Of a DNA stretch of 64,000 nt, positions 38,354 to 64,000 are shown piece by piece. The first letter of the stretch is position 1. Each line of letters begins with the position of its first letter. The notes beneath the pieces were generated by a model. The model was not told the DNA's origin and did not search any database. It saw only the letters and a list, made by a program, of their open reading frames with translations. The stretch is from Arenicola marina (taxonomy: Eukaryota > Annelida > Polychaeta > Arenicolidae), in contig CAXHSH010001379.1 of the NCBI GenBank assembly GCA_964019135.1, positions 62,001-126,000 of the forward strand. Reading direction: 5' to 3'. The position numbers and the translations under genes were made by a program.

Positions 38354-40079
38354 CTAAACACACCAGATTGCAGCATTACACCTGCCAAAACACCCGGTAC
38401 GAGCGACATACTGCTCAAAACACTCGCTTTTAGGGACATACTACTCATAACATTCGCTTTTAGGGATATACTTCACCCAACACTCAGTTATAGCGACATC
38501 ATGTACAAATCACTCGGCTTTAGCGATATACAACACAAACAGACATGATTCGATCATTTTATTAAGCAAAAAAACACTCGGTACAAGCGATATACTGCTA
38601 AAAACACCCGGTTTTAGGTACATGCTCCACAAAACATTCGGTTATAGCGACATACTGCGCAAACCACACTCGGTTTTAGCGATATACTATTCAAAACATT
38701 CGCTTTTATGGGCATACTACTAAAAACATTCGCTTTTAGGGATATACAACATCGAACACTTAGTTATAGCGGCATACTCTACAAATCACTCGGCTTTAGC
38801 GATATACAACTAAAAACATACATGGTTCGATCAATTTATTAACCAAAACACTCGGTTCTAACGATATACTACTCAAAACACTCTGTTTTAAAGGATTTAC
38901 TACATATAACACTCGAGATATACTGTACAAAACACTCCGGTTATAGCGACATACAGCACAAAACACACTCGGTTTTAAGCGACATATTATTCAAAACACC
39001 CGCATTTATGGATATACTACACCAAACTCTCAGGTATGGCGACATTCGGTACAAAACACTCGGCTTTAGTGATATACAACACAAACAAACATGGTTCGAT
39101 CATTTTTTTGACCAAAACCCTCGGTTCTATCGATGTACTGCTCAAAGCACTCGGTTTGTCAGATTTACTATACAAAAAACTCGGTTATAGCGACATCGGT
39201 ACAAAACACTCGGCTTTAGCGATATACAACACACACAAACTTGATTCGATCATTTGTCTTGACCAAAACACTCGGTTCTACCGATATGCTACTCAAAACA
39301 CTCGCTTTTAGGGACATACTACTAAAAAAACATTCGCTTTTAGACATATACTTCACCCAACACTCAGTTATAGCGGACATCCTGTACAAATCCATCGGCT
39401 TTAGCGATAAACAACACAAACAGAAATGATACGTTCATTTTATTAACCAAAACACTCGGTACGAGCGATATACTGCTAAAAACACATTTCGCAAAACCTT
39501 CAGTTAAAGCGACATACTGTATAAAACAGACGTTTTTAGCGATATACTATTTAAAACACTCGCTTTCAGGGATATGCTACACAAAACACTCTGTTATAAC
39601 GGCATACTGTACAAAGCAGTCGTCTTTAGCGATATACACCACAAACACACATGGTTCGACCATTTTATTAATCAAAACACTCGGTTCTACCGATATACTA
39701 CTCAAAACACTCGGTTTTAGGGATATACAATACAAAACACTCGGTTATAGCGATATACTGTACAAAACGCTCGGTTGTAGTGACATACTGTACAACACAC
39801 TCGGTTTTAGCAATATACTAGGGAAACACACCAGATTCCACTTACCAAAACACCCGGTACGAGAGATATACTGCTCAAAACACACGGCTATAGCAACATA
39901 ATGTACATCACACTCGGTTTTAGCCACATAGTACGTTAACACACCAGATTGCATCATTACACCTGCCAAAACAACCGGTACGAGCGATATACTACTCAAA
40001 ACACTCGCTTTTAGAGATATGCTACACAAAACCCTCGGTTATACCGACATACTGTACAAAACACTCGGGTTTTAGGGAC
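38354..40079. repeat. Satellite field, segment 6, with LINE-free target site
   Basis: Short satellite interval between minisatellite copies 5 and 6. It contains a paralogue of the LINE insertion site without the LINE. The left part (about 39036-39144) matches the sequence left of both LINE copies, including CATTTTTTTGACCAAAACCC. The right part (from about 39145, CACTCGGTTTGTCAG) matches the sequence right of LINE copy 1 (CACTCGGTTTCTCAG at 52384). Several one-base indels unique to this copy lie between 38880 and 39400. Confidence 0.9.
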
Positions 40080-41437
40080 ATGCCTCAGGGAAGGCATCAG
40101 GGAGGGCATCAGAGAGGGCATCAGGAAGGGCATCAGCAAAGGCATCAGATCGACATCCCCCAGGTCGCGCATCCGGGAGGGCATGAGGGTGGGCATCAGA
40201 AGGACATTCCCCGGGGAGGGCATCAGGGAAGGCATCAGAATGACATGCCTCAGGGAAAACCTCAGGGAGGGCAACATGGAGGGCATGAGAAGGACATCCC
40301 CAGGAAGGGAGTCATGGAGGGCATCAGGGAGAGCATTAAATGGACATCGCCCAGGGAGGGCATCGGGGAGGGCATCAGGGAGAGCATCAGGTGGACATCC
40401 CCCAGGGAGGGCATCAGGGAGAGCATCATGGAGAGTATCAGCTGGCCATCCCCAAGGGAGGGCATCAGGGAGGGCATCAGGGAGGTCATCAGCGAGGGCA
40501 TCAGAAGGACATCCCCCAGGGAGGGCATTAGAGAGGGTATTCAGGGAGGGCATCAGATGGACATCCCCAAGGGAGGGCATCAGGGAGGGCTTCAGGCAGA
40601 GAATCAGATGGACATCCCCCAGGGAGGGCATCAGGGAAGGCATCAAGGAGGGCATCAGGGAGGGCATCAGAAGTACAGCCCCCAGGGAGGGCATCACGGA
40701 GGGCATCACGCGGGGCATCAAATGGACATCTCCCAGGGAGGGCATCAGGGAGAGCATCAGATGGAAATCCCCCAGGGAGGGCATCATAGAGGGCATCAGA
40801 TGGAAATCCCCCAGGGAGGGCATCATGGAGGGCATCAGAAGGACATCCAACAGGGAGGGCATCAGGGAGGGCTTCAGGGGGAGCATCAGATGGACATCCG
40901 CCAAGGAGGCCATCAGATAGACATCCCCCAGGGAGGGAATCAGGGATGGCATGCGATGGAAATCCCCCAGGAAGGGCATCAGTGAGAGCCTCAAACAGAG
41001 AATCAGATGGACATCTCCCAGGGAATGCATGAAGGAGGGCATCAGGGAGGGCATCAGAAGTACATCCCCCAGGGAGGGCATCAGGGAGGGCATCAGATGG
41101 ACATCCCCCAGGTAGGGCATCAGATGGACATCCCCCAGGGAGGGCATCAAGGAGGGCATCAGGGAAGGCATCAGAAGAACATCCCCCAGTGACAGCGTTA
41201 GGTAAGGCATCAGGGAGGGCATCAGAGCAGGCATCATTTGGTCATCCCCCAGTGAGGGCGTCAAGGATGGCATCAGAGAGGGCATCAGATGGACATCCCC
41301 CAGGGAGGGCATCAGGGAGGGCATCAGAAGGAGCATCAGATGGACATACCCCAGGGAGGGCATCAGGGAGGACATCATCAGAAGGACACCCCCCGGGGAG
41401 GGCATCAGGGAGAGCATCAGGGAGAGCATCAGATGCT
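40080..41437. repeat. G-rich minisatellite block, copy 6
   Basis: Full-length block of the ATGCCTCAGGG type, with the 478-residue minus-strand frame open. It corresponds to copy 7 at an offset of 13236 bp, as part of the 13.3-kb macro-duplication. Confidence 0.93.
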
Positions 41438-44400
41438 CTAAACACACCAGATTGCAGCATTACACCTGCCAAAACACCCGGTACGAGCGACATACTGCTC
41501 AAAACACTCGCTTTTAGGGACATACTACTCACAACATTCGCTTTTAGGGATATACTTCACCCAACACTCAGTTATAGCGACATCATGTACAAATCACTCG
41601 GCTTTAGCGATATACAACACAAACAGACATGATTCGATCATTTTATTAAGCAAAAAAACACTTGGTACAAGCGATATACTGCTCAAAACACTCTGTTTTA
41701 AGGATTTACTACATATAACACTCGAGATATACTGTACAAAACACTCGGTTATAGCGACATACTGCACAAAACACACTCGGTTTTAGCGACATATTATTCA
41801 AAACACCCGCATTTATGGATATACTACACCAAACTCTCAGGTATGGCGACATTCGGTACAAAACACTCGGTTCTATCGATATACTGCTCAAAACACTCTG
41901 TTTTAAAGATTTACTATACAAAAAACTCGGTTATAGCGGCATTCGGTACAAAACACTCGGCTTTAGCGATATACAACACAAAAAAACATGATTCGATCAT
42001 TTTCTTGACCAAAACACTCGGTTCTACCGATATGCTACTCAGAAGACTCGTTTTAGGGACATACTACTAAAAAACATTCGCTCTTAGGGATATACTTCAC
42101 CCAACACTCTGTTATAGCGACATCCTGTACAAATCCCTCGGCTTTAGCGATATACAACACAAACAGAAATGATACGATCATTTTATTAACCAAAACACTC
42201 GGTACGAGCGATATACTGCTAAAAACACCCTTCACAAAACCTTCAGTTAAAGCGACATACTGTATAAAACGGACGTTTTTAGCGATATACTATTTAAAAC
42301 ACTCGCTTTTAGGGATATGCTACACAAAACACTCTGTTATAGCGGCATACTGTACAAATCAGTCGCCTTTAGCGATATACACCACAAACACACATGGTTC
42401 GACCATTTTATGAATCAAAACACTCGGTTTTAGGGATTTACAATACAAAACACTCGGTTATAGCGATATACTGTACAAAACGCTCGGTTGTAGTGACATA
42501 CTGTACAAAACACTCGGTTTTAGCAATATATTAGGGAAACACACCAGATTCCAGTATTCCACTTACCAAAACACCCGGTACGAGAGATATACTGCTCAAA
42601 ACACACGGTTATAGCAACATAATGTACATCACACTCGGTTTTAGCCACATTGTACGTTAACACACCAGATTGCATCATTACACCTGCCAAAACAACCGGT
42701 ACGAGCGATATACTGCACAAAACACTCGGTTTTAGGGACATACTGCACAACCCATCCGGTTAAAGCGACATACTGTACAAAACACTCGGCATTGGCGATA
42801 AACAACACAAACAAACATGATTCGATCATATGCTTGACCAAAACACTCGGTTCTACCGATGTACTGCTCAAAACACTCGGTTTTAGGGATATACTACACC
42901 AAACACTTAGTTATAGCGGCATACTCTACAAATCACTCGGCTTTAGCGATATACAACACAAACACACATGGTTCGATCATTTTATTAACCAAAACACTCG
43001 GTTCTAACGATATACTACTCAAAACACTCGCTTTTAGAGATATGCTACACAAAACCCTCGGTTATACCGACATTCTGTACAAAACCCTCGGGTTTTAGGG
43101 ACATACTACTCAAAACACTCGCTTTTAGGGATATACTTCACCCAACACTCAGTTATAGCGAAAAACGGTACAAAACACTCGGCTGTAGTGATATAGAACA
43201 CAAGCTAACATGATTCGATCATTTTCCTAAACAAAACACTCGGCTCGACCGATATACTGCTCAAAACACTCGCCTTTAGGGACATACTACTAAAAACATT
43301 CGCTTTTAGGAATATGCATCACCCAACACTCAGTTAAAGCGACATCATGTACAAATCACTCGGCTTTAGCGATATACAATACAAACAGACATGATTCGAT
43401 CATTTTATTAAGCAAAACACTCGGTACAAGCGATATACTGCTAAAAACACCCGGTTTTAGGTACAAAATACACAAAACATTCGGTTATAGCGACATACTG
43501 CGCAAACCACACTCGGTTTTAGCGATATACTATTCAAAACACTCCCTTTTAGGGACATACTACTAAAAGCATTCGCTTTTAGGGATATACAACATCGAAC
43601 ACTTAGTTATAGCGGCATACTCTATAAATCACTCGGCTTTTATCGATATACAACTCAAACACACATGGTTCGATCATTTTATTAACCAATATACTCGGTT
43701 CTAACGATATACTACTCAAAACACTCTGTTTTAAGGATTTACTACATATAACACTCGGTTATAGCGATATACTGTAAAACACACTCGGTTATAGCGACAT
43801 ATTGTACAAAACAGTCGGTACGAGCGATATACTGCTCAAAACATACGGTACAAAACACTCGGCTTTGGTGATATACAACACAAACAAACATGGTTCGATC
43901 ATTGTATTAACCAAAACACTCGGTTCTATCGATGTACTGCTCAAAAAACTCGCTTTTAGGGATATACTAGACGAAGCACTCAGTTATAGGAATTTACTGT
44001 ACCAAACACTCGGTAATAGCGACATACTCTACAACACACCCGGTTTTAATGATATACAACACAAACACACATGGTTCGATCATTTTATTAAACAAAACGC
44101 CCGGTTCTAACGATATACTGCTCAAAACACTCGCTTTTAGGGATATACTACACCAAACTCTCAGGTATAGCGACATACGGAACAAAACACTCGGCTTTAG
44201 TAATATACAACACAAACAAACATGATTCGATCATTTTCTTGACCAAAACACTCGGTTCTACCGATATGCTACTCAAAACACTCGCTTTTAGGGATATGCT
44301 ACACGAAGCACTCGGTTTTAGGGATTTACTGTACAAAACACTCGGTAATAGCGGCATACTCTACAAATCACTCGGTTTTAGCCATATACAACACAAACAC

Positions 44401-47400
44401 ACATGGTTCGATCATTTTATTAACCAAAACACTCTGTTCTAACGATATACTACTCAAAACACTCGGTTTTAAGGATTTACTACACATAACACTCGGTTAT
44501 AGCGATATACTGTAAAAGACCCTCGGTTATAGCGAAATATTGTACAAAACACTCGGTTTTAGCGACATACTAGGGAAGCACACCAGATTCCAGTATTCCA
44601 CTTCCCAAAACACTCGGGAAGAGCGATATGCTGCTCAAAACACTCGGTACGAGCGATATACTGCTCAAAACACTCGGTACGAGCGATATACTACTCAAAA
44701 CACTCGGTACGAGCGATATACTGCTTAAAACACTCGGTTATATCGACATACTGCACAAAACACAAACGGTTTTAGCGATATATTATTCAAAACACTCGCT
44801 TTTAGGGATATACTATACCAAACTCTCAGGTATAGCGACATACGGTACAAAACACTCGGCTTTAGTGATATACAACACAAACAAACATGATTCGATCATT
44901 TTCTTGACCAAATCACTCGGTTCAATCCATATGCTGCTCAAAACACTCGGTTTTAGGGATTTACCATACAAAACACTCGGTTATAGCGACATATTCTACA
45001 ACACACCCTGTTTTAATGATATACTACTCAAAACACTCGCTTCTAGGGACATACTATGCAAAACACTCGGTTATAGCGACATACTGCATAAAATACACTC
45101 GGTTTTGGCGATAGATTATTCAAAACACTCGCTTTTCGGGATATACTACACCAAACTCTCCGGTATAGCGACATACGGAACAAAACACAAACGGTTTTAG
45201 CGATATATTATTCAAAACACTCGCTTTTAGGGATATACTACACCAAACTCTCAGGTATAGCGACATTCGGTACAAAACACTCGGCTTTAGCGATATAAAA
45301 CACAAACAAACATGATTCGATCCTTTTCTTGACCAAAACACTCGCGTTTAGGGATATGCTACACGAAACACTCGGTTATAGGGATTTACTGTACAAAACA
45401 CTCGGTAATAGCGACATACTCTACAACACACCCGGTTTTAATGATATAGTACTCCAACACTCGCCGTTAGTTATATACTACATCAAACACTTAGTTATAG
45501 CGGCATACTCTACAAATCACTCGGCTTTAGCGATATACAACACAAACACACATGGTTCGATCATTTTATTAACCAAAACGCTCGGTTCTAACGATATACT
45601 ACTCAAAACACTCGGTTTTAAGGATTTACTACACATAACACTCGGTTATAGCGATATACTGTAAAAGACCCTCGGTTATAGCGAAATATTGTACAAAACA
45701 CTCGGTTTTAGCGACATACTAGGGAAGCACACCAGATTCCAGTATTCCACTTCCCAAAACACTCGGGAAGAGCGATATGCTGCTCAAAACACTCGGTACG
45801 AGCGATATACTGCTCAAAACACTCGGTACGAGCGATATACTACTCAAAACACTCGGTACGAGCGATATACTGCTTAAAACACTCGGTTATATCGACATAC
45901 TGCACAAAACACAAACGGTTTTAGCGATATATTATTCAAAACACTCGCTTTTAGGGATATACTATACCAAACTCTCAGGTATAGCGACATACGGTACAAA
46001 ACACTCGGCTTTAGTGATATACAACACAAACAAACATGATTCGATCATTTTCTTGACCAAATCACTCGGTTCAATCCATATGCTGCTCAAAACACTCGGT
46101 TTTAGGGATTTACCATACAAAACACTCGGTTATAGCGACATATTCTACAACACACCCTGTTTTAATGATATACTACTCAAAACACTCGCTTCTAGGGACA
46201 TACTATGCAAAACACTCGGTTATAGCGACATACTGCATAAAATACACTCGGTTTTAGCGATAGATTATTCAAAACACTCGCTTTTCGGGATATACTACAC
46301 CAAACTCTCCGGTATAGCGACATACGGAACAAAACACAAACGGTTTTAGCGATATATTATTCAAAACACTCGCTTTTAGGGATATACTACACCAAACTCT
46401 CAGGTATAGCGACATTCGGTACAAAACACTCGGCTTTAGCGATATAAAACACAAACAAACATGATTCGATCCTTTTCTTGACCAAAACACTCGCGTTTAG
46501 GGATATGCTACACGAAACACTCGGTTATAGGGATTTACTGTACAAAACACTCGGTAATAGCGACATACTCTACAACACACCCGGTTTTAATGATATAGTA
46601 CTCCAACACTCGCCGTTAGTTATATACTACATCAAACACTTAGTTATAGCGGCATACTCTACAAATCACTCGGCTTTAGCGATATACAACACAAACACAC
46701 TTGGTTCGATCATTTTATTAACCAAAACGCTCGGTTCTAACGATATACTGCTCAAAACACTCGGTGTTGCTGATTTACTACGTATAACACTCAATTTATA
46801 TACTGTTAAACACACTCAGTTATAGCGAAATATTGTACAAAACACTCGGTTTTAGCGACATACTAGGGAAGCACACCAGATTCCAGTATTCCACCTCCCA
46901 AAACACTCGGTAAGAGCGATATACTGCTCAAAACACTCGGTACGAGCGATATACTGCTCAAAACACTCGGTTATAGCGACATACTGCACAAAACACACTC
47001 GGTTTTAGCGATATATTATTCAAAACACTCGCCTTTAGGAATATACTACACCAAACACCAAACCAAAAACAGTCGGCTTTAGTGATATACAACACAAATA
47101 CACATGATTCGATCATTTTCTGGACCAAAACACTCGGTTCTACCGATATACTGCTCAAAACACTCGGTTTTATTGATTTTCTACACACAACACTCGGTTA
47201 TAGCGACAGTCGGTACAAAACACTCGGCTTTAGCGATATAAAACACGAACAAACATGATTCGATCATTTTCTTGACCAAAACACTCGCTTTGAGGGATAT
47301 ACTACACGAAGCACTCGGTTATAGGGATATACTGTACAAAACACTCGGTAATAGCGACATACTCTACAACACACTCTGTTTTAATGATATACTACTCAAA

Positions 47401-48338
47401 ACACTCGCTTTTAGTGACATACTATGCAAAACACTCGGTCATAGCGACATACTGCACAAAACACACTCGGTTTTAGTGATATATTATTCAAAACACTCGC
47501 TTTTAGGGATATACTACACCAAACTCTCCGGTATAGCGACATACGGAACAAAACACTCGGCTTTAGTGATATACAACACAAACAAACATGATTCGATCAT
47601 TTTCTTGACCAAAACACTCGGTTTTACCGATATGCTACTCAAAACACTCGCTTTTAGGGATATGCTACACGAAGCACTCGGTTATAGGGATTTACTGTAC
47701 AAAACACTCGGTAATAGCGGCATACTCTACAAATCACTCGGTTTTAGTCATATACAACACAAACACACATGGTTCGATCATTTTATTAGCCAAAACACTC
47801 TGTTCTAACGATATACTACTCAAAACACTCGGTTTTAAGGATTTACTACACATAACACTCGGTTATAGCGATATACTGTAAAAGACCCTCGGTTATAGCG
47901 AAATATTGTACAAAACACTCGGTTTTAGCGACATACTAGGGAAGCACACCAGATTCCAGTATTCCACTTCCCAAAACACTCGGGAAGAGCGATATGCTGC
48001 TCAAAACACTCGGTACGAGCGATATACTGCTCAAAACACTCGGTACGAGCGATATACTGCTCAAAACACTCGGTTCTAACGATATACTACTCAAAACACT
48101 CGCTTTTAGGGACATACTATGCAAAACACTCGGTCATAGCGACATACTGCACAAAACACACTCGGTTTTAGCGATATATTATTCAAAACACTCGCTTTTA
48201 GGGATATACTACACCAAACTCTCAGGTATGGCGACATTCGGTACAAAACACTCGGCTTTAGTGATATACAACACAAACAAACATGGTTCGATCATTTTTT
48301 TGACCAAAACCCTTGGTTCTATCGATGTACTGCTCAAA
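41438..48338. repeat. Satellite field, segment 7 (left of LINE copy 1)
   Basis: 30/61-bp satellite. Relative to the copy at 54674 it lacks 61 bp near 41865-41880: one long monomer was lost between two CAAAACACTCGG boxes. It includes the macro-unit anchors at 45103 and 46252 (a short 1149-bp unit between them). It ends abruptly at the LINE junction, CTGCTCAAA followed by CTCAAACGG. No gene is seen. Confidence 0.92.
45103..46251. repeat. Macro-unit U7 (1149-bp remnant)
   Basis: From the anchor (here TTTTGGCGATAG) to the next anchor is only 1149 bp. It is a fusion of the first ~0.5 kb and last ~0.65 kb of the U1-type unit, with about 6.5 kb missing. The same remnant recurs at 58400-59548. Confidence 0.84.
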
Positions 48339-48792
48339 CTCAAACGGACGTGGACGCAGCCGGACGGATCAGGACGGACCGGCGACGGGACCAGGACGAC
48401 GACATAACGCGACAGTAGACAGGAGACCTGCGTATCGCATCGCCGACCGCGGAGAACGGGACCGTGACGGAGACGACTGGACCCAGGTTCAGCGACGGCA
48501 CCGTGACGGAGGCGAGTGGACGCGGGGACAGCGACGGCACTGTGACGGAGGCGAGAGGACGCAGGTAGAGGGACGGCACCGTGACGGAGGCGAGTGGACA
48601 CATGTAGAGCGACGGCACCGAGCCCGACGAGAGGTGACAGACAGATCCCGCGCGACAGAGAAGACGAACGACCAGCCTAGGTGTTACTACTGCGCGGAGG
48701 AAGGACATGTTACTGACAACTGCCGACATGGACACTACGTCACTTGTTACACTTGTGGTCGCTCGGGCCACAAGGCCAAGTTTTGTAAATAG
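48339..48792 (+). CDS. LINE ORF1 (5'-partial), Arg-rich with two CCHC zinc knuckles
   Basis: The element's first open frame ends at the TAG at 48790-48792. The frame runs upstream into satellite, where the first ATG is at 48313. The first eight to nine residues of that reading are therefore satellite-derived and the true N-terminus is probably missing. Seen: an Arg/Asp/Gly-rich basic region with four tandem 13-residue units (48478-48633), then two CCHC knuckles, CYYCAEEGHVTDNC and CYTCGRSGHKAKFC, both C-x2-C-x4-H-x4-C. In LINEs such ORF1 proteins bind RNA and package the transcript into ribonucleoprotein; here that role is inferred from the family. At about 150 residues it is shorter than typical CR1-group ORF1 proteins, consistent with 5' truncation. 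The frame is the same as ORF2, with one stop between them. Confidence 0.8.
48478..48633 (+). repeat. Four tandem 39-bp units inside LINE ORF1
   Basis: Four successive 13-codon units beginning W/R-T and ending in a Glu: WTQVQRRHRDGGE, WTRGQRRHCDGGE, RTQVEGRHRDGGE and a diverged fourth, WTHVERRHRARRE. At the DNA level GACGGCACCGTGACGGAGGC recurs. The repeats add Arg and His residues and precede the zinc knuckles, so they plausibly form a flexible nucleic-acid-binding tract. Confidence 0.85.
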
Positions 48793-48819
48793 GTATTCGG
48801 CAACGGAGGAAGGGCCGAT

Positions 48820-51800
48820 ATGTTAAGTGATGGCTCCACTGACGATTTAATATTATGTAGCAAGTCTGATTTACATTTTATGAATGAGGGGAGCTGTCAA
48901 TGTGATTTTACTGGGCAACTAGACAGTAAAGCCCATATTTTAAGCGATCTAACCGACACAGATGTTGTACATTGTAATGATGAGCTTTGTTTTATGGAAG
49001 ATGACATGTCACGTGATGTTTTAACGATACCATGCAAGGTAAAAGAGTCAAAAGATATTTTAAGCCGTGCTGCAGATAGTGTAAGATACCGGCCTGATCA
49101 GCCTTTTATGATGAATGAGGATCATACATGTGCCCCTAGCGACATAATAGCTACACCCAAGAATAATGAGGTAAGGTACGACCCCACATCTGTCCAGGAC
49201 TGCCGCAATCATGAAAAGGTAAGTGAACGACAGGAGAATTTAGTGGCAGCGATCGAAACCAACGAAGATGAAGAGTTATTTGGGCTCGCGCCATTTCATC
49301 AGAGAAATGTAAAAAATCTCAAGATAGCCCACATTAACATAAACAGCGTACGACATAAGTTTGGACCGCTTAGCCAAGCACTGGGAAAAGGCGTATTAGA
49401 TGTCTTGTTCATTCAAGAGACTAAGTTGGACGATAGCTTTCCGGCAGGCCAATTTACTTTAAATGGGTACGAGGTCCACCGAAATGATAATACAGACAGC
49501 TCTGGAGGCATAATGGTGCAGGTAAGAGACGATATACCACACCGGCGGCGCAAGGATATAGAAATTAATGAAGACGAGAAGGGGCGTATCGAATCCCTGG
49601 CAATAGAAGTGACGCTGAATGCTGAAAAGTGGCTCTTTCTCAGTGTATACAAGCAGCCGAAGGTAAAAAACGCATTACTTGTGACAAAGATCGATAGCCT
49701 TCTGAATGCAATCGCTGCTGAACAGGTTAACCTTGTACTGTTGGGAGATTTAAATGTAAACATGTTAAACCATAAAAATTGTCTGAATGACGTATTAGAG
49801 GTCTATGGTACTAAAAATATCGTTAAGTCACCAACTTGTTTCAAAGGTAAAGTACCGACCTTAATTGATGTTGTGATTACAAATGTGTCGAAGCGCTTAC
49901 GAGATGTATCATGTATAGATACGGGCCTCAGCGATTTTCACCATATGGTTTGCGTAGCAACGAAAATAGAAGTTCCCATTAGGCAGCAGAAACGTGTCTA
50001 TTATCGAAGCTTTAAACATTTTGATGAGATTAAATACAAAGACGATCTAGCATCGGTACCTTTTCATGTAGGTGAAGTCTTTGAAGATGTTGATGATTCA
50101 TATTGGTTTTGTAGCACATTGATCAAAGAGGTCGTTGATAGACATGCACCAACCAAGCAACGGGTAGTTAAGAATAACTGTGTGCCCTATATGAATAGCC
50201 ATCTTCGCAAAGCCATAAATGTAAAAAATATGCTGAGACGGAAGTACGAGCAATTGAGTAGCCAAGAGAATTGGGAAAAATACAAAAAGCAAAGGAATCT
50301 CATAGGACGTCTTCGGAAAGTAAGCATGCAAAAGTACATAAAGGGGAAATGTAGCGAAGCTACGACTAACGGGAAGGAATTCTGGAAAGTTGTAAAACCA
50401 CTGATATCAAGAAAAAACGCAAGCAGCGGAAACGTGTTACTGAAAGAGCGAGACGAAATAATATCAGATCCATCAAAGGTAAGTGACATATTTAATCAAT
50501 ATTTCATAGACGTTGCCAAAGACATAGGCCAACAAGATGACATACCAGATGATCAACCAATAGACGAAACCCTTCTTTATCACAAAGACCATAAATCCGT
50601 TATGGCTATAAAGGAAGGTAACCAAGGTATAACGGAAACTTTTAACTTTCGGGCAGTAAGTAGCCACGAAATATACAATGCACTTAAAGGCATTGACGTG
50701 TCGAAGGCTAGTGGCTACGACAAGATACCTCCGAAGCTCATCAAGCTGGGAGTTGCCATCCTGTGTGAGCCATTAAGGTATGTGTTAAATATGACGATTA
50801 ATTGTAATACGTTTCCAAAAGAACTAAAATACGCTGAAGTCACACCAATTTTCAAGAAGAAGGATAACTTAAATAAGGAAAACTACAGGCCAGTAAGTGT
50901 TCTCCCCTGTATCTCCAAGATATATGAAAAAATATTGTGTGACCAGCTTATGTCCTTTATGGAACCCAGGTTATCACCCAGACTATCTGGGTTTAGAAAG
51001 GGACACAGTTGTCAAAGTCTACTGATGCGCTTAGTTGAAGACTCCAAAAATGCATTAGATAATAATCAAGTTATGGGAGCTATACTAATGGATCTCTCAA
51101 AAGCATTCGATTGTCTTCCACATAGATTATTGATTACCAAGATGAACGCTTATGGCATAAGTAAACAATCATGTACGCTAGTTGCAAGCTATCTTACGAA
51201 CCGCGAACAGAGGGTAAAACTAGGACATAATCGGAGCGAGTGGCTTACCCTCAAGAAAGGAGCACCACAGGGATCTGTTTTTGGTCCACATCTGTATAAT
51301 GTATTTACGAATGACCTGCTTGTATCCACCGCACGGGGAACCGATAAGTATAATTATGCTGATGATAATACTGTGGCGGCTCAAGGTAAGGAGTTTAACA
51401 AGGTTAAAGTAACTCTAGAGAAGGCGTTATCGGAGATAACAACGTGGTTCGTCGACAATTACATGAAAGCGAACCCAAGTAAGTACCAGGCAATCGTGTT
51501 TGAAAAGAGAAACGAATTAAGTCAGCACAGATCGTTTTCGATTTCTGGAACAGAACTGGCAGCACAACAGGAAGTAACATTACTAGGTATTCAACTGGAC
51601 GCTAGGTTAACTTTCGGCAACCATATATCAAGTTTATGCAAGAAGGCTGGAAAAAGTCTCAATGTCTTAGCTAGAGTTTCTAAATTAATGGATGTTGATA
51701 GCAAACTTACGTTATTTCATGCTTTTATTCTTTCACATTTTAATTATTGTCCCGTTGTATGGCATTTTTGTGATATGAAAAATATGCGTAAGATTGAAAA

Positions 51801-52380: not shown

Positions 52381-53315
52381 AAACACTCGGTTTCTCAGAT
52401 TTACTATACAAAAAACTCGCTTATAGCGACATTCGGTACAAAACACTCGGCTTTAGCGATATACAACACACACAAACTTGATTCGATCATTTTCTTGACC
52501 AAAACACTCGGTTCTACCGATATGCTACTCAAAACACTCGCTTTTAGGGACATACTACTAAAAAAAACATTCGCTTTTAGGCATATACTTCACCCAACAC
52601 TCAGTTATAGCGACATCCTGTACAAATCCATCGGCTTTAGCGATAAACAACACAAACAGAAATGATACGATCATTTTATTAACCAAAACACTCGGTACGA
52701 GCGATATACTGCTAAAAACACCCTTCGCAAAACCTTCAGTTAAAGCGACATACTGTATAAAACAGACGTTTTTAGCGATATACTATTTAAAACACTCGCT
52801 TTCAGGGATATGCTACACAAAACACTCTGTTATAGCGGCATACTGTACAAAGCAGTCGTCTTTAGCGATATACACCACAAACACACATGGTTCGACCATT
52901 TTATTAATCAAAACACTCGGTTCTACCGCTATACTACTCAAAACACTCGGTTTTAGGGATATACAATACAAAACACTCGGTTATAGCGATATACTGTACA
53001 AAACGCTCGGTTGTAGTGACATACTGTACAAAACACTCAGTTTTAGCAATATACTAGGGAAACACACCATATTCCACTTACCAAAACACTCGGTACGAGA
53101 GATATACTGCTCAAAACACACGGCTATAGCAACATAATGTACATCACACTCGGTTTTAGCCACATAGTACGTTAACACACCAGATTGCATCATTACACCT
53201 GCCAAAACAACCGGTACGAGCGATATACTACTCAAAACACTCGCTTTTAGAGATATGCTACACAAAACCCTCGGTTATACCGACATACTGTACAAAACAC
53301 TCGGGTTTTACGGAC
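52381..53315. repeat. Satellite field, segment 8 (right of LINE copy 1)
   Basis: 30/61-bp satellite resuming right after the LINE tail. It matches 39145-40079 and leads into minisatellite copy 7, giving the right-hand flank of the insertion site. No gene is seen. Confidence 0.93.
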
Positions 53316-54673
53316 ATGCCTCAGGGAAGGCATCAGGGAGGGCATCAGAGAGGGCATCAGGAAGGGCATCAGCAAAGGCATCAGATCGACATCCCCCAGG
53401 TCGCGCATCCGGGAGGGCATGAGGGTGGGCATCAGAAGGACATTCCCCGGGGAGGGCATCAGGGAAGGCATCAGAATGACATGCCTCAGGGAAAACCTCA
53501 GGGAGGGCAACATGGAGGGCATGAGAAGGACATCCCCAGGAAGGGAGTCATGGAGGGCATCAGGGAGAGCATTAAATGGACATCGCCCAGGGAGGGCATC
53601 AGGGAGGGCATCAGGGAGAGCATCAGGTGGACATCCCCCAGGGAGGGCATCAGGGAGAGCATCAGGGAGAGTATCAGCTGGCCATCCCCAAGGGAGGGCA
53701 TCAGGGAGGGCATCAGGGAGGTCATCAGCGAGGGCATCAGAAGGACATCCCCCAGGGAGGGCATTAGAGAGGGTATTCAGGGAGCGCATCAGATGGACAT
53801 CCCTAAGGGAGGGCATCAGGGAGGGCTTCAGGCAGAGAATCAGATGGACATCCCCCAGGGAGGGCATCAGGGAAGGCATCAAGGAGGGCATCAGGGAGGG
53901 CATCAGAAGTACAGCCCCCAGGGAGGGCATCACGGAGGGCATCACGCGGGGCATCAAATGGACATCTCCCAGGGAGGGCATCAGGGAGAGCATCAGATGG
54001 AAATCCCCCAGGGAGGGCATCATAGAGGGCATCAGATGGAAATCCCCCAGGGAGGGCATCATGGAGGGCATCAGAAGGACATCCAACAGGGAGGGCATCA
54101 GGGAGGGCTTCAGGGGGAGCATCAGATGGACATCCGCCAAGGAGGCCATCAGATAGACATCCCCCAGGGAGGGAATCAGGGATGGCATGCGATGGAAATC
54201 CCCCAGGGAGGGCATCAGTGAGAGCCTCAAACAGAGAATCAGATGGACATCTCCCAGGGAATGCATGAAGGAGGGCATCAGGGAGGGCATCAGAAGTACA
54301 TCCCCCAGGGAGGGCATCAGGGAGGGCATCAGATGGACATCCCCCAGGTAGGGCATCAGATGGACATCCCCCAGGGAGGGCATCAAGGAGGGCATCAGGG
54401 AAGGCATCAGAAGAACATCCCCCAGGGACAGCGTTAGGTAAGGCATCAGGGAGGGCATCAGAGAGGGCATCATTTGGTCATCCCCCAGTGAGGGCGTCAA
54501 GGATGGCATCAGAGAGGGCATCAGATGGACATCCCCCAGGGAGGGCATCAGGGAGGGCATCAGAAGGAGCATCAGATGGACATACCCCAGGGAGGGCATC
54601 AGGGAGGACATCATCAGAAGGACACCCCCCGGGGAGGGCATCAGGGAGAGCATCAGGGAGAGCATCAGATGCT
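53316..54673. repeat. G-rich minisatellite block, copy 7
   Basis: Full-length block of the ATGCCTCAGGG type, nearly identical to copy 6 (offset 13236). It has a few private substitutions, for example in GGGAGCGCATCAG near 53783 and ATCCCTAAGGG near 53800. The 478-residue minus-strand frame is open. Confidence 0.93.
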
Positions 54674-57600
54674 CTAAACACACCAGATTGCAGCATTACA
54701 CCTGCCAAAACACCCGGTACGAGCGACATACTGCTCAAAACACTCGCTTTTAGGGACATACTACTCACAACATTCGCTTTTAGGGATATACTTCACCCAA
54801 CACTCAGTTATAGCGACATCATGTACAAATCACTCGGCTTTAGCGATATACAACACAAACAGACATGATTCGATCATTTTATTAAGCAAAAAAACACTTG
54901 GTACAAGCGATATACTGCTCAAAACACTCTGTTTTAAGGATTTACTACATATAACACTCGAGATATACTGTACAAAACACTCGGTTATAGCGACATACTG
55001 CACAAAACACACTCGGTTTTAGCGACATATTATTCAAAACACCCGCATTTATGGATATACTACACCAAACTCTCAGGTATGGCGACATTCGGTACAAAAC
55101 ACTCGGCTTTAGTGATATACAACACAAACAAACATGGTTCGATCATTTTCTTGACCAAAACACTCGGTTCTATCGATATACTGCTCAAAACACTCTGTTT
55201 TAAAGATTTACTATACAAAAAACTCGGTTATAGCGGCATTCGGTACAAAACACTCGGCTTTAGCGATATACAACACAAAAAAACATGATTCGATCATTTT
55301 CTTGACCAAAACACTCGGTTCTACCGATATGCTACTCAGAAGACTCGTTTTAGGGACATACTACTAAAAAACATTCGCTCTTAGGGATATACTTCACCCA
55401 ACACTCTGTTATAGCGACATCCTGTACAAATCCCTCGGCTTTAGCGATATACAACACAAACAGAAATGATACGATCATTTTATTAACCAAAACACTCGGT
55501 ACGAGCGATATACTGCTAAAAACACCCTTCACAAAACCTTCAGTTAAAGCGACATACTGTATAAAACGGACGTTTTTAGCGATATACTATTTAAAACACT
55601 CGCTTTTAGGGATATGCTACACAAAACACTCTGTTATAGCGGCATACTGTACAAATCAGTCGCCTTTAGCGATATACACCACAAACACACATGGTTCGAC
55701 CATTTTATGAATCAAAACACTCGGTTTTAGGGATTTACAATACAAAACACTCGGTTATAGCGATATACTGTACAAAACGCTCGGTTGTAGTGACATACTG
55801 TACAAAACACTCGGTTTTAGCAATATATTAGGGAAACACACCAGATTCCAGTATTCCACTTACCAAAACACCCGGTACGAGAGATATACTGCTCAAAACA
55901 CACGGTTATAGCAACATAATGTACATCACACTCGGTTTTAGCCACATTGTACGTTAACACACCAGATTGCATCATTACACCTGCCAAAACAACCGGTACG
56001 AGCGATATACTGCACAAAACACTCGGTTTTAGGGACATACTGCACAACCCATCCGGTTAAAGCGACATACTGTACAAAACACTCGGCATTGGCGATAAAC
56101 AACACAAACAAACATGATTCGATCATATGCTTGACCAAAACACTCGGTTCTACCGATGTACTGCTCAAAACACTCGGTTTTAGGGATATACTACACCAAA
56201 CACTTAGTTATAGCGGCATACTCTACAAATCACTCGGCTTTAGCGATATACAACACAAACACACATGGTTCGATCATTTTATTAACCAAAACACTCGGTT
56301 CTAACGATATACTACTCAAAACACTCGCTTTTAGAGATATGCTACACAAAACCCTCGGTTATACCGACATTCTGTACAAAACCCTCGGGTTTTAGGGACA
56401 TACTACTCAAAACACTCGCTTTTAGGGATATACTTCACCCAACACTCAGTTATAGCGAAAAACGGTACAAAACACTCGGCTGTAGTGATATAGAACACAA
56501 GCTAACATGATTCGATCATTTTCCTAAACAAAACACTCGGCTCGACCGATATACTGCTCAAAACACTCGCCTTTAGGGACATACTACTAAAAACATTCGC
56601 TTTTAGGAATATGCATCACCCAACACTCAGTTAAAGCGACATCATGTACAAATCACTCGGCTTTAGCGATATACAATACAAACAGACATGATTCGATCAT
56701 TTTATTAAGCAAAACACTCGGTACAAGCGATATACTGCTAAAAACACCCGGTTTTAGGTACAAAATACACAAAACATTCGGTTATAGCGACATACTGCGC
56801 AAACCACACTCGGTTTTAGCGATATACTATTCAAAACACTCCCTTTTAGGGACATACTACTAAAAGCATTCGCTTTTAGGGATATACAACATCGAACACT
56901 TAGTTATAGCGGCATACTCTATAAATCACTCGGCTTTTATCGATATACAACTCAAACACACATGGTTCGATCATTTTATTAACCAATATACTCGGTTCTA
57001 ACGATATACTACTCAAAACACTCTGTTTTAAGGATTTACTACATATAACACTCGGTTATAGCGATATACTGTAAAACACACTCGGTTATAGCGACATATT
57101 GTACAAAACAGTCGGTACGAGCGATATACTGCTCAAAACATACGGTACAAAACACTCGGCTTTGGTGATATACAACACAAACAAACATGGTTCGATCATT
57201 GTATTAACCAAAACACTCGGTTCTATCGATGTACTGCTCAAAAAACTCGCTTTTAGGGATATACTAGACGAAGCACTCAGTTATAGGAATTTACTGTACC
57301 AAACACTCGGTAATAGCGACATACTCTACAACACACCCGGTTTTAATGATATACAACACAAACACACATGGTTCGATCATTTTATTAAACAAAACGCCCG
57401 GTTCTAACGATATACTGCTCAAAACACTCGCTTTTAGGGATATACTACACCAAACTCTCAGGTATAGCGACATACGGAACAAAACACTCGGCTTTAGTAA
57501 TATACAACACAAACAAACATGATTCGATCATTTTCTTGACCAAAACACTCGGTTCTACCGATATGCTACTCAAAACACTCGCTTTTAGGGATATGCTACA

Positions 57601-60600
57601 CGAAGCACTCGGTTTTAGGGATTTACTGTACAAAACACTCGGTAATAGCGGCATACTCTACAAATCACTCGGTTTTAGCCATATACAACACAAACACACA
57701 TGGTTCGATCATTTTATTAACCAAAACACTCTGTTCTAACGATATACTACTCAAAACACTCGGTTTTAAGGATTTACTACACATAACACTCGGTTATAGC
57801 GATATACTGTAAAAGACCCTCGGTTATAGCGAAATATTGTACAAAACACTCGGTTTTAGCGACATACTAGGGAAGCACACCAGATTCCAGTATTCCACTT
57901 CCCAAAACACTCGGGAAGAGCGATATGCTGCTCAAAACACTCGGTACGAGCGATATACTGCTCAAAACACTCGGTACGAGCGATATACTACTCAAAACAC
58001 TCGGTACGAGCGATATACTGCTTAAAACACTCGGTTATATCGACATACTGCACAAAACACAAACGGTTTTAGCGATATATTATTCAAAACACTCGCTTTT
58101 AGGGATATACTATACCAAACTCTCAGGTATAGCGACATACGGTACAAAACACTCGGCTTTAGTGATATACAACACAAACAAACATGATTCGATCATTTTC
58201 TTGACCAAATCACTCGGTTCAATCCATATGCTGCTCAAAACACTCGGTTTTAGGGATTTACCATACAAAACACTCGGTTATAGCGACATATTCTACAACA
58301 CACCCTGTTTTAATGATATACTACTCAAAACACTCGCTTCTAGGGACATACTATGCAAAACACTCGGTTATAGCGACATACTGCATAAAATACACTCGGT
58401 TTTGGCGATAGATTATTCAAAACACTCGCTTTTCGGGATATACTACACCAAACTCTCCGGTATAGCGACATACGGAACAAAACACAAACGGTTTTAGCGA
58501 TATATTATTCAAAACACTCGCTTTTAGGGATATACTACACCAAACTCTCAGGTATAGCGACATTCGGTACAAAACACTCGGCTTTAGCGATATAAAACAC
58601 AAACAAACATGATTCGATCCTTTTCTTGACCAAAACACTCGCGTTTAGGGATATGCTACACGAAACACTCGGTTATAGGGATTTACTGTACAAAACACTC
58701 GGTAATAGCGACATACTCTACAACACACCCGGTTTTAATGATATAGTACTCCAACACTCGCCGTTAGTTATATACTACATCAAACACTTAGTTATAGCGG
58801 CATACTCTACAAATCACTCGGCTTTAGCGATATACAACACAAACACACATGGTTCGATCATTTTATTAACCAAAACGCTCGGTTCTAACGATATACTACT
58901 CAAAACACTCGGTTTTAAGGATTTACTACACATAACACTCGGTTATAGCGATATACTGTAAAAGACCCTCGGTTATAGCGAAATATTGTACAAAACACTC
59001 GGTTTTAGCGACATACTAGGGAAGCACACCAGATTCCAGTATTCCACTTCCCAAAACACTCGGGAAGAGCGATATGCTGCTCAAAACACTCGGTACGAGC
59101 GATATACTGCTCAAAACACTCGGTACGAGCGATATACTACTCAAAACACTCGGTACGAGCGATATACTGCTTAAAACACTCGGTTATATCGACATACTGC
59201 ACAAAACACAAACGGTTTTAGCGATATATTATTCAAAACACTCGCTTTTAGGGATATACTATACCAAACTCTCAGGTATAGCGACATACGGTACAAAACA
59301 CTCGGCTTTAGTGATATACAACACAAACAAACATGATTCGATCATTTTCTTGACCAAATCACTCGGTTCAATCCATATGCTGCTCAAAACACTCGGTTTT
59401 AGGGATTTACCATACAAAACACTCGGTTATAGCGACATATTCTACAACACACCCTGTTTTAATGATATACTACTCAAAACACTCGCTTCTAGGGACATAC
59501 TATGCAAAACACTCGGTTATAGCGACATACTGCATAAAATACACTCGGTTTTAGCGATAGATTATTCAAAACACTCGCTTTTCGGGATATACTACACCAA
59601 ACTCTCCGGTATAGCGACATACGGAACAAAACACAAACGGTTTTAGCGATATATTATTCAAAACACTCGCTTTTAGGGATATACTACACCAAACTCTCAG
59701 GTATAGCGACATTCGGTACAAAACACTCGGCTTTAGCGATATAAAACACAAACAAACATGATTCGATCCTTTTCTTGACCAAAACACTCGCGTTTAGGGA
59801 TATGCTACACGAAACACTCGGTTATAGGGATTTACTGTACAAAACACTCGGTAATAGCGACATACTCTACAACACACCCGGTTTTAATGATATAGTACTC
59901 CAACACTCGCCGTTAGTTATATACTACATCAAACACTTAGTTATAGCGGCATACTCTACAAATCACTCGGCTTTAGCGATATACAACACAAACACACTTG
60001 GTTCGATCATTTTATTAACCAAAACGCTCGGTTCTAACGATATACTGCTCAAAACACTCGGTGTTGCTGATTTACTACGTATAACACTCAATTTATATAC
60101 TGTTAAACACACTCAGTTATAGCGAAATATTGTACAAAACACTCGGTTTTAGCGACATACTAGGGAAGCACACCAGATTCCAGTATTCCACCTCCCAAAA
60201 CACTCGGTAAGAGCGATATACTGCTCAAAACACTCGGTACGAGCGATATACTGCTCAAAACACTCGGTTATAGCGACATACTGCACAAAACACACTCGGT
60301 TTTAGCGATATATTATTCAAAACACTCGCCTTTAGGAATATACTACACCAAACACCAAACCAAAAACAGTCGGCTTTAGTGATATACAACACAAATACAC
60401 ATGATTCGATCATTTTCTGGACCAAAACACTCGGTTCTACCGATATACTGCTCAAAACACTCGGTTTTATTGATTTTCTACACACAACACTCGGTTATAG
60501 CGACAGTCGGTACAAAACACTCGGCTTTAGCGATATAAAACACGAACAAACATGATTCGATCATTTTCTTGACCAAAACACTCGCTTTGAGGGATATACT

Positions 60601-61635
60601 ACACGAAGCACTCGGTTATAGGGATATACTGTACAAAACACTCGGTAATAGCGACATACTCTACAACACACTCTGTTTTAATGATATACTACTCAAAACA
60701 CTCGCTTTTAGTGACATACTATGCAAAACACTCGGTCATAGCGACATACTGCACAAAACACACTCGGTTTTAGTGATATATTATTCAAAACACTCGCTTT
60801 TAGGGATATACTACACCAAACTCTCCGGTATAGCGACATACGGAACAAAACACTCGGCTTTAGTGATATACAACACAAACAAACATGATTCGATCATTTT
60901 CTTGACCAAAACACTCGGTTTTACCGATATGCTACTCAAAACACTCGCTTTTAGGGATATGCTACACGAAGCACTCGGTTATAGGGATTTACTGTACAAA
61001 ACACTCGGTAATAGCGGCATACTCTACAAATCACTCGGTTTTAGTCATATACAACACAAACACACATGGTTCGATCATTTTATTAGCCAAAACACTCTGT
61101 TCTAACGATATACTACTCAAAACACTCGGTTTTAAGGATTTACTACACATAACACTCGGTTATAGCGATATACTGTAAAAGACCCTCGGTTATAGCGAAA
61201 TATTGTACAAAACACTCGGTTTTAGCGACATACTAGGGAAGCACACCAGATTCCAGTATTCCACTTCCCAAAACACTCGGGAAGAGCGATATGCTGCTCA
61301 AAACACTCGGTACGAGCGATATACTGCTCAAAACACTCGGTACGAGCGATATACTGCTCAAAACACTCGGTTCTAACGATATACTACTCAAAACACTCGC
61401 TTTTAGGGACATACTATGCAAAACACTCGGTCATAGCGACATACTGCACAAAACACACTCGGTTTTAGCGATATATTATTCAAAACACTCGCCTTTAGGG
61501 ATATACTACACCAAACTCTCAGGTATGGCGACATTCGGTACAAAACACTCGGCTTTAGTGATATACAACACAAACAAACATGGTTCGATCATTTTTTTGA
61601 CCAAAACCCTTGGTTCTATCGATGTACTGCTCAAA
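54674..61635. repeat. Satellite field, segment 9 (left of LINE copy 2)
   Basis: Copy of segment 7 at offset 13236, becoming 13297 after the 61-bp monomer that segment 7 lacks. It has anchors at 58400 and 59549. A private difference just before the LINE is C at 61493 where the other copy has T at 48196. No gene is seen. Confidence 0.93.
58400..59548. repeat. Macro-unit U9 (1149-bp remnant, copy of U7)
   Basis: Offset 13297 from U7, including the TTTTGGCGATAG anchor variant. This confirms that the whole region is one tandem segmental copy. Confidence 0.84.
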
Positions 61636-62089
61636 CTCAAACGGACGTGGACGCAGCCGGACGGATCAGGACGGACCGGCGACGGGACCAGGACGACGAC
61701 ATAACGCGACAGTAGACAGGAGACCTGCGTATCGCATCGCCGACCGCGGAGAACGGGACCGTGACGGAGACGACTGGACCCAGGTTCAGCGACGGCACCG
61801 TGACGGAGGCGAGTGGACGCGGGGACAGCGACGGCACTGTGACGGAGGCGAGAGGACGCAGGTAGAGGGACGGCACCGTGACGGAGGCGAGTGGACACAT
61901 GTAGAGCGACGGCACCGAGCCCGACGAGAGGTGACAGACAGATCCCGCGCGACAGAGAAGACGAACGACCAGCCTAGGTGTTACTACTGCGCGGAGGAAG
62001 GACATGTTACTGACAACTGCCGACATGGACACTACGTCACTTGTTACACTTGTGGTCGCTCGGGCCACAAGGCCAAGTTTTGTAAATAG
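61636..62089 (+). CDS. LINE ORF1 (5'-partial), copy 2
   Basis: Identical in translation to the ORF1 of copy 1. It has the same four 13-residue Arg-rich units (61775-61930), the same two CCHC knuckles and the same TAG stop at 62087-62089. The first in-frame ATG at 61610 again lies in satellite, so the native N-terminus is missing or unknown. Its inferred role is RNA binding in the LINE ribonucleoprotein. Confidence 0.8.
61775..61930 (+). repeat. Four tandem 39-bp units inside ORF1, copy 2
   Basis: The same 13-codon tandem units as at 48478-48633, with no differences noticed. Confidence 0.83.
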
Positions 62090-62116
62090 GTATTCGGCAA
62101 CGGAGGAAGGGCCGAT

Positions 62117-64000
62117 ATGTTAAGTGATGGCTCCACTGACGATTTAATATTATGTAGCAAGTCTGATTTACATTTTATGAATGAGGGGAGCTGTCAATGT
62201 GATTTTACTGGGCAACTAGACAGTAAAGCCCATATTTTAAGCGATCTAACCGACACAGATGTTGTACATTGTAATGATGAGCTTTGTTTTATGGAAGATG
62301 ACATGTCACGTGATGTTTTAACGATACCATGCAAGGTAAAAGAGTCAAAAGATATTTTAAGCCGTGCTGCAGATAGTGTAAGATACCGGCCTGATCAGCC
62401 TTTTATGATGAATGAGGATCATACATGTGCCCCTAGCGACATAATAGCTACACCCAAGAATAATGAGGTAAGGTACGACCCCACATCTGTCCAGGACTGC
62501 CGCAATCATGAAAAGGTAAGTGAACGACAGGAGAATTTAGTGGCAGCGATCGAAACCAACGAAGATGAAGAGTTATTTGGGCTCGCGCCATTTCATCAGA
62601 GAAATGTAAAAAATCTCAAGATAGCCCACATTAACATAAACAGCGTACGACATAAGTTTGGACCGCTTAGCCAAGCACTGGGAAAAGGCGTATTAGATGT
62701 CTTGTTCATTCAAGAGACTAAGTTGGACGATAGCTTTCCGGCAGGCCAATTTACTTTAAATGGGTACGAGGTCCACCGAAATGATAATACAGACAGCTCT
62801 GGAGGCATAATGGTGCAGGTAAGAGACGATATACCACACCGGCGGCGCAAGGATATAGAAATTAATGAAGACGAGAAGGGGCGTATCGAATCCCTGGCAA
62901 TAGAAGTGACGCTGAATGCTGAAAAGTGGCTCTTTCTCAGTGTATACAAGCAGCCGAAGGTAAAAAACGCATTACTTGTGACAAAGATCGATAGCCTTCT
63001 GAATGCAATCGCTGCTGAACAGGTTAACCTTGTACTGTTGGGAGATTTAAATGTAAACATGTTAAACCATAAAAATTGTCTGAATGACGTATTAGAGGTC
63101 TATGGTACTAAAAATATCGTTAAGTCACCAACTTGTTTCAAAGGTAAAGTACCGACCTTAATTGATGTTGTGATTACAAATGTGTCGAAGCGCTTACGAG
63201 ATGTATCATGTATAGATACGGGCCTCAGCGATTTTCACCATATGGTTTGCGTAGCAACGAAAATAGAAGTTCCCATTAGGCAGCAGAAACGTGTCTATTA
63301 TCGAAGCTTTAAACATTTTGATGAGATTAAATACAAAGACGATCTAGCATCGGTACCTTTTCATGTAGGTGAAGTCTTTGAAGATGTTGATGATTCATAT
63401 TGGTTTTGTAGCACATTGATCAAAGAGGTCGTTGATAGACATGCACCAACCAAGCAACGGGTAGTTAAGAATAACTGTGTGCCCTATATGAATAGCCATC
63501 TTCGCAAAGCCATAAATGTAAAAAATATGCTGAGACGGAAGTACGAGCAATTGAGTAGCCAAGAGAATTGGGAAAAATACAAAAAGCAAAGGAATCTCAT
63601 AGGACGTCTTCGGAAAGTAAGCATGCAAAAGTACATAAAGGGGAAATGTAGCGAAGCTACGACTAACGGGAAGGAATTCTGGAAAGTTGTAAAACCACTG
63701 ATATCAAGAAAAAACGCAAGCAGCGGAAACGTGTTACTGAAAGAGCGAGACGAAATAATATCAGATCCATCAAAGGTAAGTGACATATTTAATCAATATT
63801 TCATAGACGTTGCCAAAGACATAGGCCAACAAGATGACATACCAGATGATCAACCAATAGACGAAACCCTTCTTTATCACAAAGACCATAAATCCGTTAT
63901 GGCTATAAAGGAAGGTAACCAAGGTATAACGGAAACTTTTAACTTTCGGGCAGTAAGTAGCCACGAAATATACAATGCACTTAAAGGCATTGACGTGTCG
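62117..64000 (+). CDS. LINE ORF2, 3'-partial at window end (first 628 codons)
   Basis: Begins at the ATG at 62117, 27 bases after the ORF1 stop, and stays open to the last base of the window, exactly 628 codons. It contains the N-terminal acidic region, the whole APE-like endonuclease (QETKL, GDLN, SDFHH) and the linker. It stops being visible just as the reverse transcriptase begins. The frame is intact throughout what can be seen. Confidence 0.93.
   Translation, partial: MLSDGSTDDLILCSKSDLHFMNEGSCQCDFTGQLDSKAHILSDLTDTDVVHCNDELCFMEDDMSRDVLTIPCKVKESKDILSRAADSVRYRPDQPFMMNEDHTCAPSDIIATPKNNEVRYDPTSVQDCRNHEKVSERQENLVAAIETNEDEELFGLAPFHQRNVKNLKIAHININSVRHKFGPLSQALGKGVLDVLFIQETKLDDSFPAGQFTLNGYEVHRNDNTDSSGGIMVQVRDDIPHRRRKDIEINEDEKGRIESLAIEVTLNAEKWLFLSVYKQPKVKNALLVTKIDSLLNAIAAEQVNLVLLGDLNVNMLNHKNCLNDVLEVYGTKNIVKSPTCFKGKVPTLIDVVITNVSKRLRDVSCIDTGLSDFHHMVCVATKIEVPIRQQKRVYYRSFKHFDEIKYKDDLASVPFHVGEVFEDVDDSYWFCSTLIKEVVDRHAPTKQRVVKNNCVPYMNSHLRKAINVKNMLRRKYEQLSSQENWEKYKKQRNLIGRLRKVSMQKYIKGKCSEATTNGKEFWKVVKPLISRKNASSGNVLLKERDEIISDPSKVSDIFNQYFIDVAKDIGQQDDIPDDQPIDETLLYHKDHKSVMAIKEGNQGITETFNFRAVSSHEIYNALKGIDVS

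What the first reader, a model, noticed from the sequence alone, without database searches (positions are those of the whole stretch)
39145..64000. A LINE carried along by a 13.3-kb satellite macro-duplication
Both LINE copies have the same left junction (CTGCTCAAA then CTCAAACGG at 48338/48339 and 61635/61636), the same 5' truncation point and the same flanks for many kilobases. Independent insertions would not do this, so the LINE inserted once and became part of a new higher-order repeat. The only differences I saw near the LINE are flanking ones (T at 48196, C at 61493) and a 61-bp monomer indel, so the duplication is recent. It shows an array turning a mobile gene into a satellite component.
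Basis: partly seen in the sequence, partly recalled or inferred. Interest (0 to 1): 0.75.

Follow-up and report, generated by a model that had tools for sequence, protein, structure and literature searches.

The report
Retrotransposon captured and copied by satellite
A broken copy of a jumping gene landed once in a long DNA repeat array of an animal genome and was then copied to four places by the array's own duplications; the process is known in kind, but this is an unusually clean and recent example.

Summary
The two LINE copies have identical junctions and no base difference where both are complete (the second was read past the window end). The recent duplication is a 13,236-bp unit (13,297 with a 61-bp difference) whose crossover maps to window 41,230-41,504 / 54,466-54,740, not to 39,145/52,381; the stretch to its left is older paralogy (about 98.9%).

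The window lies in contig C739 of an 867-Mb animal assembly. Exact genome-wide searches find 4 filled sites (spacings 13.3, 20.6, 22.8 kb) and 8 empty sites, all on C739. The four LINEs share 7 alleles absent from the outside copies compared (two against 16 of 16, five against 2 of 2). Nine flank alleles are in 4 of 4 filled and 0 of 8 empty sites. Filled flanks differ from each other by 0.10-0.17%, from empty ones by 0.70-0.80%. The LINE is 5'-truncated; ORF2 is open in all four.

So: one insertion, then at least three duplications by homologous out-of-register exchange (unequal crossing over or break-induced replication, not separable here). A new member of a known kind. Assembly error is unlikely for copies 3 and 4, and not excluded for copy 1 versus 2.

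The parts
48344..52379 (+). LINE copy 1 (4,036 bp, 5'-truncated non-LTR retrotransposon, probably with APE-type endonuclease); tail of TATCT-like units
   Evidence: no difference from copy 2
61641..64000 (+). LINE copy 2, cut by the window end; continues to C739:127,676 (window-equivalent 65,676)
48346..48792 (+). C-terminal fragment of ORF1 with CCHC zinc knuckle; upstream part lost by the 5' truncation
   Evidence: zf-CCHC; translation
48793..52149 (+). ORF2, stop-to-stop 1,118 aa: endonuclease (Pfam match below cut-off) and reverse transcriptase
   Evidence: RVT_1 E 3e-33; Exo_endo_phos 21.9 bits, cut-off 24.5; R2 and LINE-1 among PDB matches
48339..48343 (+). 5-nt filler CTCAA between satellite flank and LINE; repeats the preceding flank letters
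   Evidence: Empty versus filled site comparison
61636..61640 (+). Same filler at copy 2
41230..41504 (+). Left crossover interval (275 bp): no difference here separates the two parental paralogues
   Evidence: Last older mismatch at C739:103,229
54466..54740 (+). Matching right crossover interval; the junction between unit 1 and unit 2 lies here
   Evidence: First mismatch of copy 1 versus copy 2 right flank at C739:116,741
41230..54465 (+). Duplicated unit 1 (13,236 bp; ends known to within 275 bp), carrying LINE copy 1
   Evidence: 1 mismatch and one 61-bp indel against unit 2
54466..64000 (+). Duplicated unit 2, carrying LINE copy 2; runs past the window end
55095..55155 (+). 61-bp (two-monomer) segment present in unit 2 and absent from unit 1
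39144..41229 (+). Older paralogue of 52,380-54,465; not part of the recent event
   Evidence: 23 mismatches and 4 single-base gaps listed between C739:101,141 and 103,229; 98.9% over 39,144-41,884

Best explanation
A young, 5'-truncated LINE inserted once into one satellite repeat on contig C739. The satellite array then duplicated the segment by homologous out-of-register exchange between paralogous repeat blocks, at least three times, giving four LINE-bearing units. Shown from the assembly: shared junctions, shared private alleles, eight empty sites, and the crossover interval of the event that made copies 1 and 2. Inferred: that the other copies arose by the same kind of exchange, that the exchange was unequal crossing over or break-induced replication, and that the LINE plays no active part, because its 5' end and the start of ORF1 are missing.
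For: Exact genome-wide pattern searches: left junction 4 hits, right junction 4 hits, empty site 8 hits, all on C739; reversed-pattern controls 0 in each. Seven empty sites were read across the target and all 8 compared. The four array LINEs all carry 1128G and 1509G, where 16 of 16 fetched outside copies have A, and 1942A, 2396C, 2410T, 3805A and 4025C, absent from 2 of 2 outside copies fetched for that part. Nine flank alleles are in 4 of 4 filled and 0 of 8 empty sites; divergence filled-filled 0.167% left and 0.101% right, filled-empty 0.797% and 0.702%. Copy 1 versus copy 4: 5/4,036 in the LINE, 3 in about 2,360 bp to its right, 4 in about 4,280 bp to its left before a cluster of 6 where the alignment ends. 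The crossover of copies 1/2 maps inside paired 275-bp intervals and the identical tract (13,511 bp) is at least as long as the period.
Against: No reads were available, so copy 1 versus copy 2 (1 mismatch in 13.5 kb) rests on the assembly. Only 276 of 369 kb of C739 was read directly; the rest was covered by searches only. Empty sites were counted by an exact 25-base pattern, so diverged ones are missed. The unit lengths are unequal, so further rearrangement is needed (about 1.15 kb present left of copies 1, 2 and 4 is missing left of copy 3). On the right flank, empty sites differ among themselves (0.676%) about as much as filled from empty (0.702%), so there the filled group is not more distant, only more uniform. 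Five of the seven shared LINE alleles were checked against only two outside copies.
Confidence: 0.9

Rival explanations
1. Assembly duplication: one LINE-bearing unit was written more than once by the assembler (chiefly a risk for copy 1 versus copy 2; not exclusive of the main reading for the other copies).
For: Copies 1 and 2 do not differ in the LINE and differ at one base over 13.5 kb; no read data; C739 is a small contig, probably unplaced (inference).
Against: Copies 3 and 4 differ from 1 and 2 by 1 and 5 LINE bases and by flank variants, and have different spacings and outer flanks. The copy 1/2 junction is a homologous exchange between older paralogues with different alleles on either side. 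LINE-free stretches of the same contig show similar large duplications.
Confidence: 0.07
2. Independent LINE insertions into the same preferred site of several satellite units.
For: The LINE family is young, with many near-identical copies, and the satellite offers many similar targets.
Against: Same truncation point, same 5-nt filler, same tail end, LINE alleles shared only by the array copies, and flank alleles that separate filled from empty.
Confidence: 0.01
3. Spread by gene conversion: the LINE with long flanks was copied into existing empty units instead of the array gaining units (possible for some copies beside duplication for others).
For: The near-identical tracts have ends inside the array; the unit spacings differ. 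For copies 2/3 the tract (15.0 kb) is shorter than the offset (20.6 kb).
Against: For copies 1/2 the tract is at least as long as the period, which a tandem duplication predicts and conversion does not require. Tracts of 13-22 kb are long for conversion (own knowledge).
Confidence: 0.1

Closest known systems
Unequal exchange / break-induced replication models of satellite higher-order repeats (Smith 1976; reviewed in PMC8997354, passages seen)
   Same: Variants inside a tandem array are duplicated together as larger units by out-of-register exchange; here tandem, same strand, homologous breakpoint for copies 1/2.
   Different: Here the tracked variant is a 4-kb LINE; the two mechanisms cannot be told apart with this data.
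Retrotransposon fragments hitchhiking in rDNA spacers of Lepidoptera (PMC10257491, passages seen)
   Same: Non-autonomous elements are passed on with the tandem array that holds them.
   Different: rDNA is a selected gene array; here the host is a satellite, and the insertion site, empty sites and one crossover are resolved to the base or to 275 bp.
ATHILA insertions duplicated after integration in Arabidopsis centromere satellites (recalled; the paper asked for is not held)
   Same: A retrotransposon inside a satellite is copied with its flanks after insertion.
   Different: LTR element, plant and 178-bp satellite, against a LINE in an animal with a roughly 30-bp composite satellite.

Membership tests
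Non-LTR retrotransposon (LINE), APE-endonuclease type | Reverse transcriptase of non-LTR type | tested here: met
   RVT_1 115.7 bits, cut-off 29.6; R2 and LINE-1 chains are the best of 11 PDB sequences matched
Non-LTR retrotransposon (LINE), APE-endonuclease type | APE-type endonuclease N-terminal to the RT | tested here: inconclusive
   Exo_endo_phos E 1.7e-4, 21.9 bits against cut-off 24.5; Exo_endo_phos_2 20.0 against 27.4; not listed at E 0.001 with the whole ORF
Non-LTR retrotransposon (LINE), APE-endonuclease type | Insertion by target-primed reverse transcription: 5' truncation, 3' tail, target-site duplication | tested here: inconclusive
   5' truncation and short-repeat tail met; target duplication is at most 3 A's and cannot be separated from tail letters
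Particular LINE clade (CR1, Jockey and relatives) | Placement in an RT tree with named references | not tested
   No reference set of LINE clades was at hand
Satellite higher-order repeat containing a transposon | Same insertion at the same site in several tandem units, beside empty units | tested here: met
   4 filled and 8 empty sites on C739
Satellite higher-order repeat containing a transposon | Regular period of the LINE-bearing unit | tested here: not met
   Spacings 13,297, 20,622 and 22,812 bp; filed as variant units, not as a regular higher-order repeat
Centromeric satellite | Binding of the centromeric histone, or primary constriction | not testable with these tools
   No chromatin or cytological data

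The most novel reading that the evidence does not exclude
The LINE-bearing lineage is now the expanding variant of this array, and the insertion itself promotes exchange around it (for example through a long stretch of unique homology that aligns sister chromatids), so that a dead retrotransposon gains copies by steering satellite recombination. Against it: LINE-free parts of the same contig show duplications of similar size.
Probability: 0.08. Interest if true: 0.65.

Novelty: new member of a known kind. Interest (0 to 1): 0.38.

Why it matters
A unique 4-kb marker in an otherwise repetitive array, with filled and empty sites on one contig and alleles shared only by the array copies, orders the events (flank split, insertion, amplification) and lets one crossover be placed within 275 bp. 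That makes satellite turnover measurable in this animal. The principle itself is established.

Tried and rejected
Independent insertion was rejected on junctions, LINE alleles and flank alleles. A full-length LINE was considered, where many copies share one match start, and rejected, where 16 of 16 fetched outside copies continue upstream. For the organism: Bindin (PF02084) gave nothing, but the control rang nowhere, so it says nothing. Contig C762 carries ORFs that I read as ND3, ND2, COX1 and COX2; only COX1 was found by a family search, the other names are my reading of the translations, and no tRNA was found in that stretch by a bacterial-code scan. That gene order I recall from annelids and several gastropods; the species was not identified. 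One paper asked for by DOI is not held. The paper searches were on the general process, not on this satellite by name or sequence, so I make no claim that it is unpublished.

Rows dropped and put back: 6 of 16 outside LINE loci gave clean ungapped comparisons, 5 were set aside for 40 or more differences and 5 because the start word was not found. One search aligned 11 of them with gaps; the other 5 lie in reverse orientation and were aligned. All 16 are in the final count for the alleles 1128 and 1509.

Full report
What is there. The window is contig C739, bases 62,001-126,000, of an 867-Mb assembly in 762 contigs. Of the 369,163 bp of C739, 1-276,000 was read. A scan for satellite words leaves gaps over 150 bp only in the four LINE copies and at three places of 170 bp. 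In the first 256 kb the word ACACTCG occurs on one strand only (reverse count 0 in every 5-kb row). It is a composite satellite of roughly 30-bp monomers with GC-rich blocks of about 1.3 kb, 40 of them in the 276 kb. A monomer word occurs on eight other contigs as well.

The observation. Ungapped extension from the junction gives one mismatch to the left, the stated T/C pair, back to the 61-bp indel, and none to the right before C739:116,741. A gapped alignment shows that identity continues left of the 61-bp indel for 629 bp and then drops to the older level. The recent event is therefore a duplication of 13,236 bp, with the 61-bp difference arising later, and the exchange lies within window 41,230-41,504 and 54,466-54,740, where the two parental paralogues cannot be told apart. 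The identical tract (13,511 positions, 1 mismatch) is at least as long as the period, as a tandem duplication by homologous exchange predicts.

Four filled sites, eight empty sites. Exact pattern searches of the whole assembly find the left junction 4 times, the right junction 4 times and the empty site 8 times, all on C739, with 0 hits for the reversed-pattern controls. The filled sites lie at C739 110.3, 123.6, 144.2 and 167.1 kb, with spacings 13,297, 20,622 and 22,812 bp. Seven empty sites lie to the left (5.7-56 kb) and one to the right (186.5 kb); no exact empty site lies between. Related but more distant sites (about 91% and less) are common in the array. The six pairs of LINE-bearing units share tracts of 9.4 to 22.1 kb at 99.74-99.95% identity, and LINE-free stretches share tracts of similar size, for example 14.3 kb at 99.66%. 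Large duplications are therefore normal for this array and do not need the LINE.

One insertion. An empty site reads CTGCTCAAAACACTCGG. The filled site keeps CTGCTCAAA on the left and AAAACACTCGG on the right, with five extra letters, CTCAA, before the first LINE base. Any target duplication is at most three A's. All 16 non-array copies fetched continue upstream of the junction, so this LINE is 5'-truncated. The four array copies share seven LINE alleles that the compared outside copies lack: two against 16 of 16 copies and five against 2 of 2. They may date from the source element or from the time after insertion. Nine flank alleles occur in 4 of 4 filled and 0 of 8 empty sites.

Order of events. 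Flank divergence is 0.797% (left, 600 bp) and 0.702% (right, 2.3 kb) between filled and empty sites, 0.167% and 0.101% among filled sites, and 0.289% and 0.676% among empty sites. Among the LINEs, copies 1 and 2 do not differ, copy 3 differs from them by 1 base and copy 4 by 5. The four changes private to copy 4 are derived by comparison with two outside copies; the fifth site is unpolarised. Four sites (C739 109,174, 114,039, 115,090 and 115,785) separate copies 1 and 2 from copies 3 and 4, so neighbours are closest relatives. Between copies 1 and 4, LINE and flank diverge to a similar degree: 5 in 4,036 bp, 3 in about 2,360 bp to the right, and 4 in about 4,280 bp to the left before a cluster of 6 where the alignment ends. 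That is expected if they were copied together. Four copies from one insertion need at least three copying events. The left side of copy 3 lacks about 1.15 kb that copies 1, 2 and 4 have: the offset to copy 4 shifts from 21,663 to 22,812 there, and copies 1, 2 and 4 show two repeats 1,149 bp apart where copy 3 shows one.

What the LINE is. ORF2 has a reverse transcriptase, endonuclease matches below the Pfam cut-off, and R2 and LINE-1 as best solved relatives. The preceding frame is the C-terminal part of an ORF1 with a zinc knuckle. ORF2 is open in all four copies. Because the 5' end is lost, I infer that these copies are not autonomous and gain copies only through the array. The family is young: of the 40 best of 2,496 first-look candidates, scored with a 2,379-bp probe, the 36 outside the array match at 99-100%; the first look's best were scored, so this does not describe older copies.

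Mechanism and rivals. Homologous out-of-register exchange is shown by breakpoint position for copies 1/2 and inferred for the others. Unequal crossing over and break-induced replication, both described in PMC8997354 (passages seen), leave the same trace here. An assembly duplication is unlikely for copies 3 and 4 and remains possible, at low probability, for copy 1 against copy 2. Gene conversion into existing units fits the copy 1/2 tract less well, but is not excluded for copies 2/3, where the tract (15.0 kb) is shorter than the offset (20.6 kb). Independent insertion is contradicted. The odds given to the readings are not exclusive of each other, since different copies may differ in origin.

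Novelty. Transposon fragments that hitchhike in tandem arrays are described (PMC10257491, passages seen), satellites built from transposons are reviewed (PMC9659126, passages seen), and post-integration duplication of ATHILA in Arabidopsis centromeres is recalled, its paper not being held. This is a new and well-resolved member of that kind.

Noticed in passing
53247-54695 (-), and 2122-3570, 9789-11237, 14843-16252, 40011-41459 (-): The GC-rich satellite blocks hold long stop-free frames (469-482 aa) and others on both strands; listed repeat units of 12, 39 and 51 bp are multiples of three, so this is probably a by-product of the unit lengths.
   Followed up: no
44574-46349: A 1,149-bp tandem sub-repeat lies left of the LINE; LINE units 1, 2 and 4 keep about 1.15 kb there that unit 3 lacks.
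   Followed up: partly
23833-24407: A 293-bp tandem duplication with 100% matches, perhaps another very recent exchange.
   Followed up: no
C739:203894-218173 and 220632-234910: LINE-free duplication of 14.3 kb at 99.66% identity, offset 16.7 kb: turnover on the same scale without a LINE.
   Followed up: partly
C739:167075-171110 (LINE copy 4): All four private changes of LINE copy 4 are transversions; a small number, unexplained.
   Followed up: no
L045 (contig C762): Probably the mitochondrial contig; by my reading of the ORFs the order is ND3-ND2-COX1-COX2, which points to a lophotrochozoan animal by recall only.
   Followed up: partly
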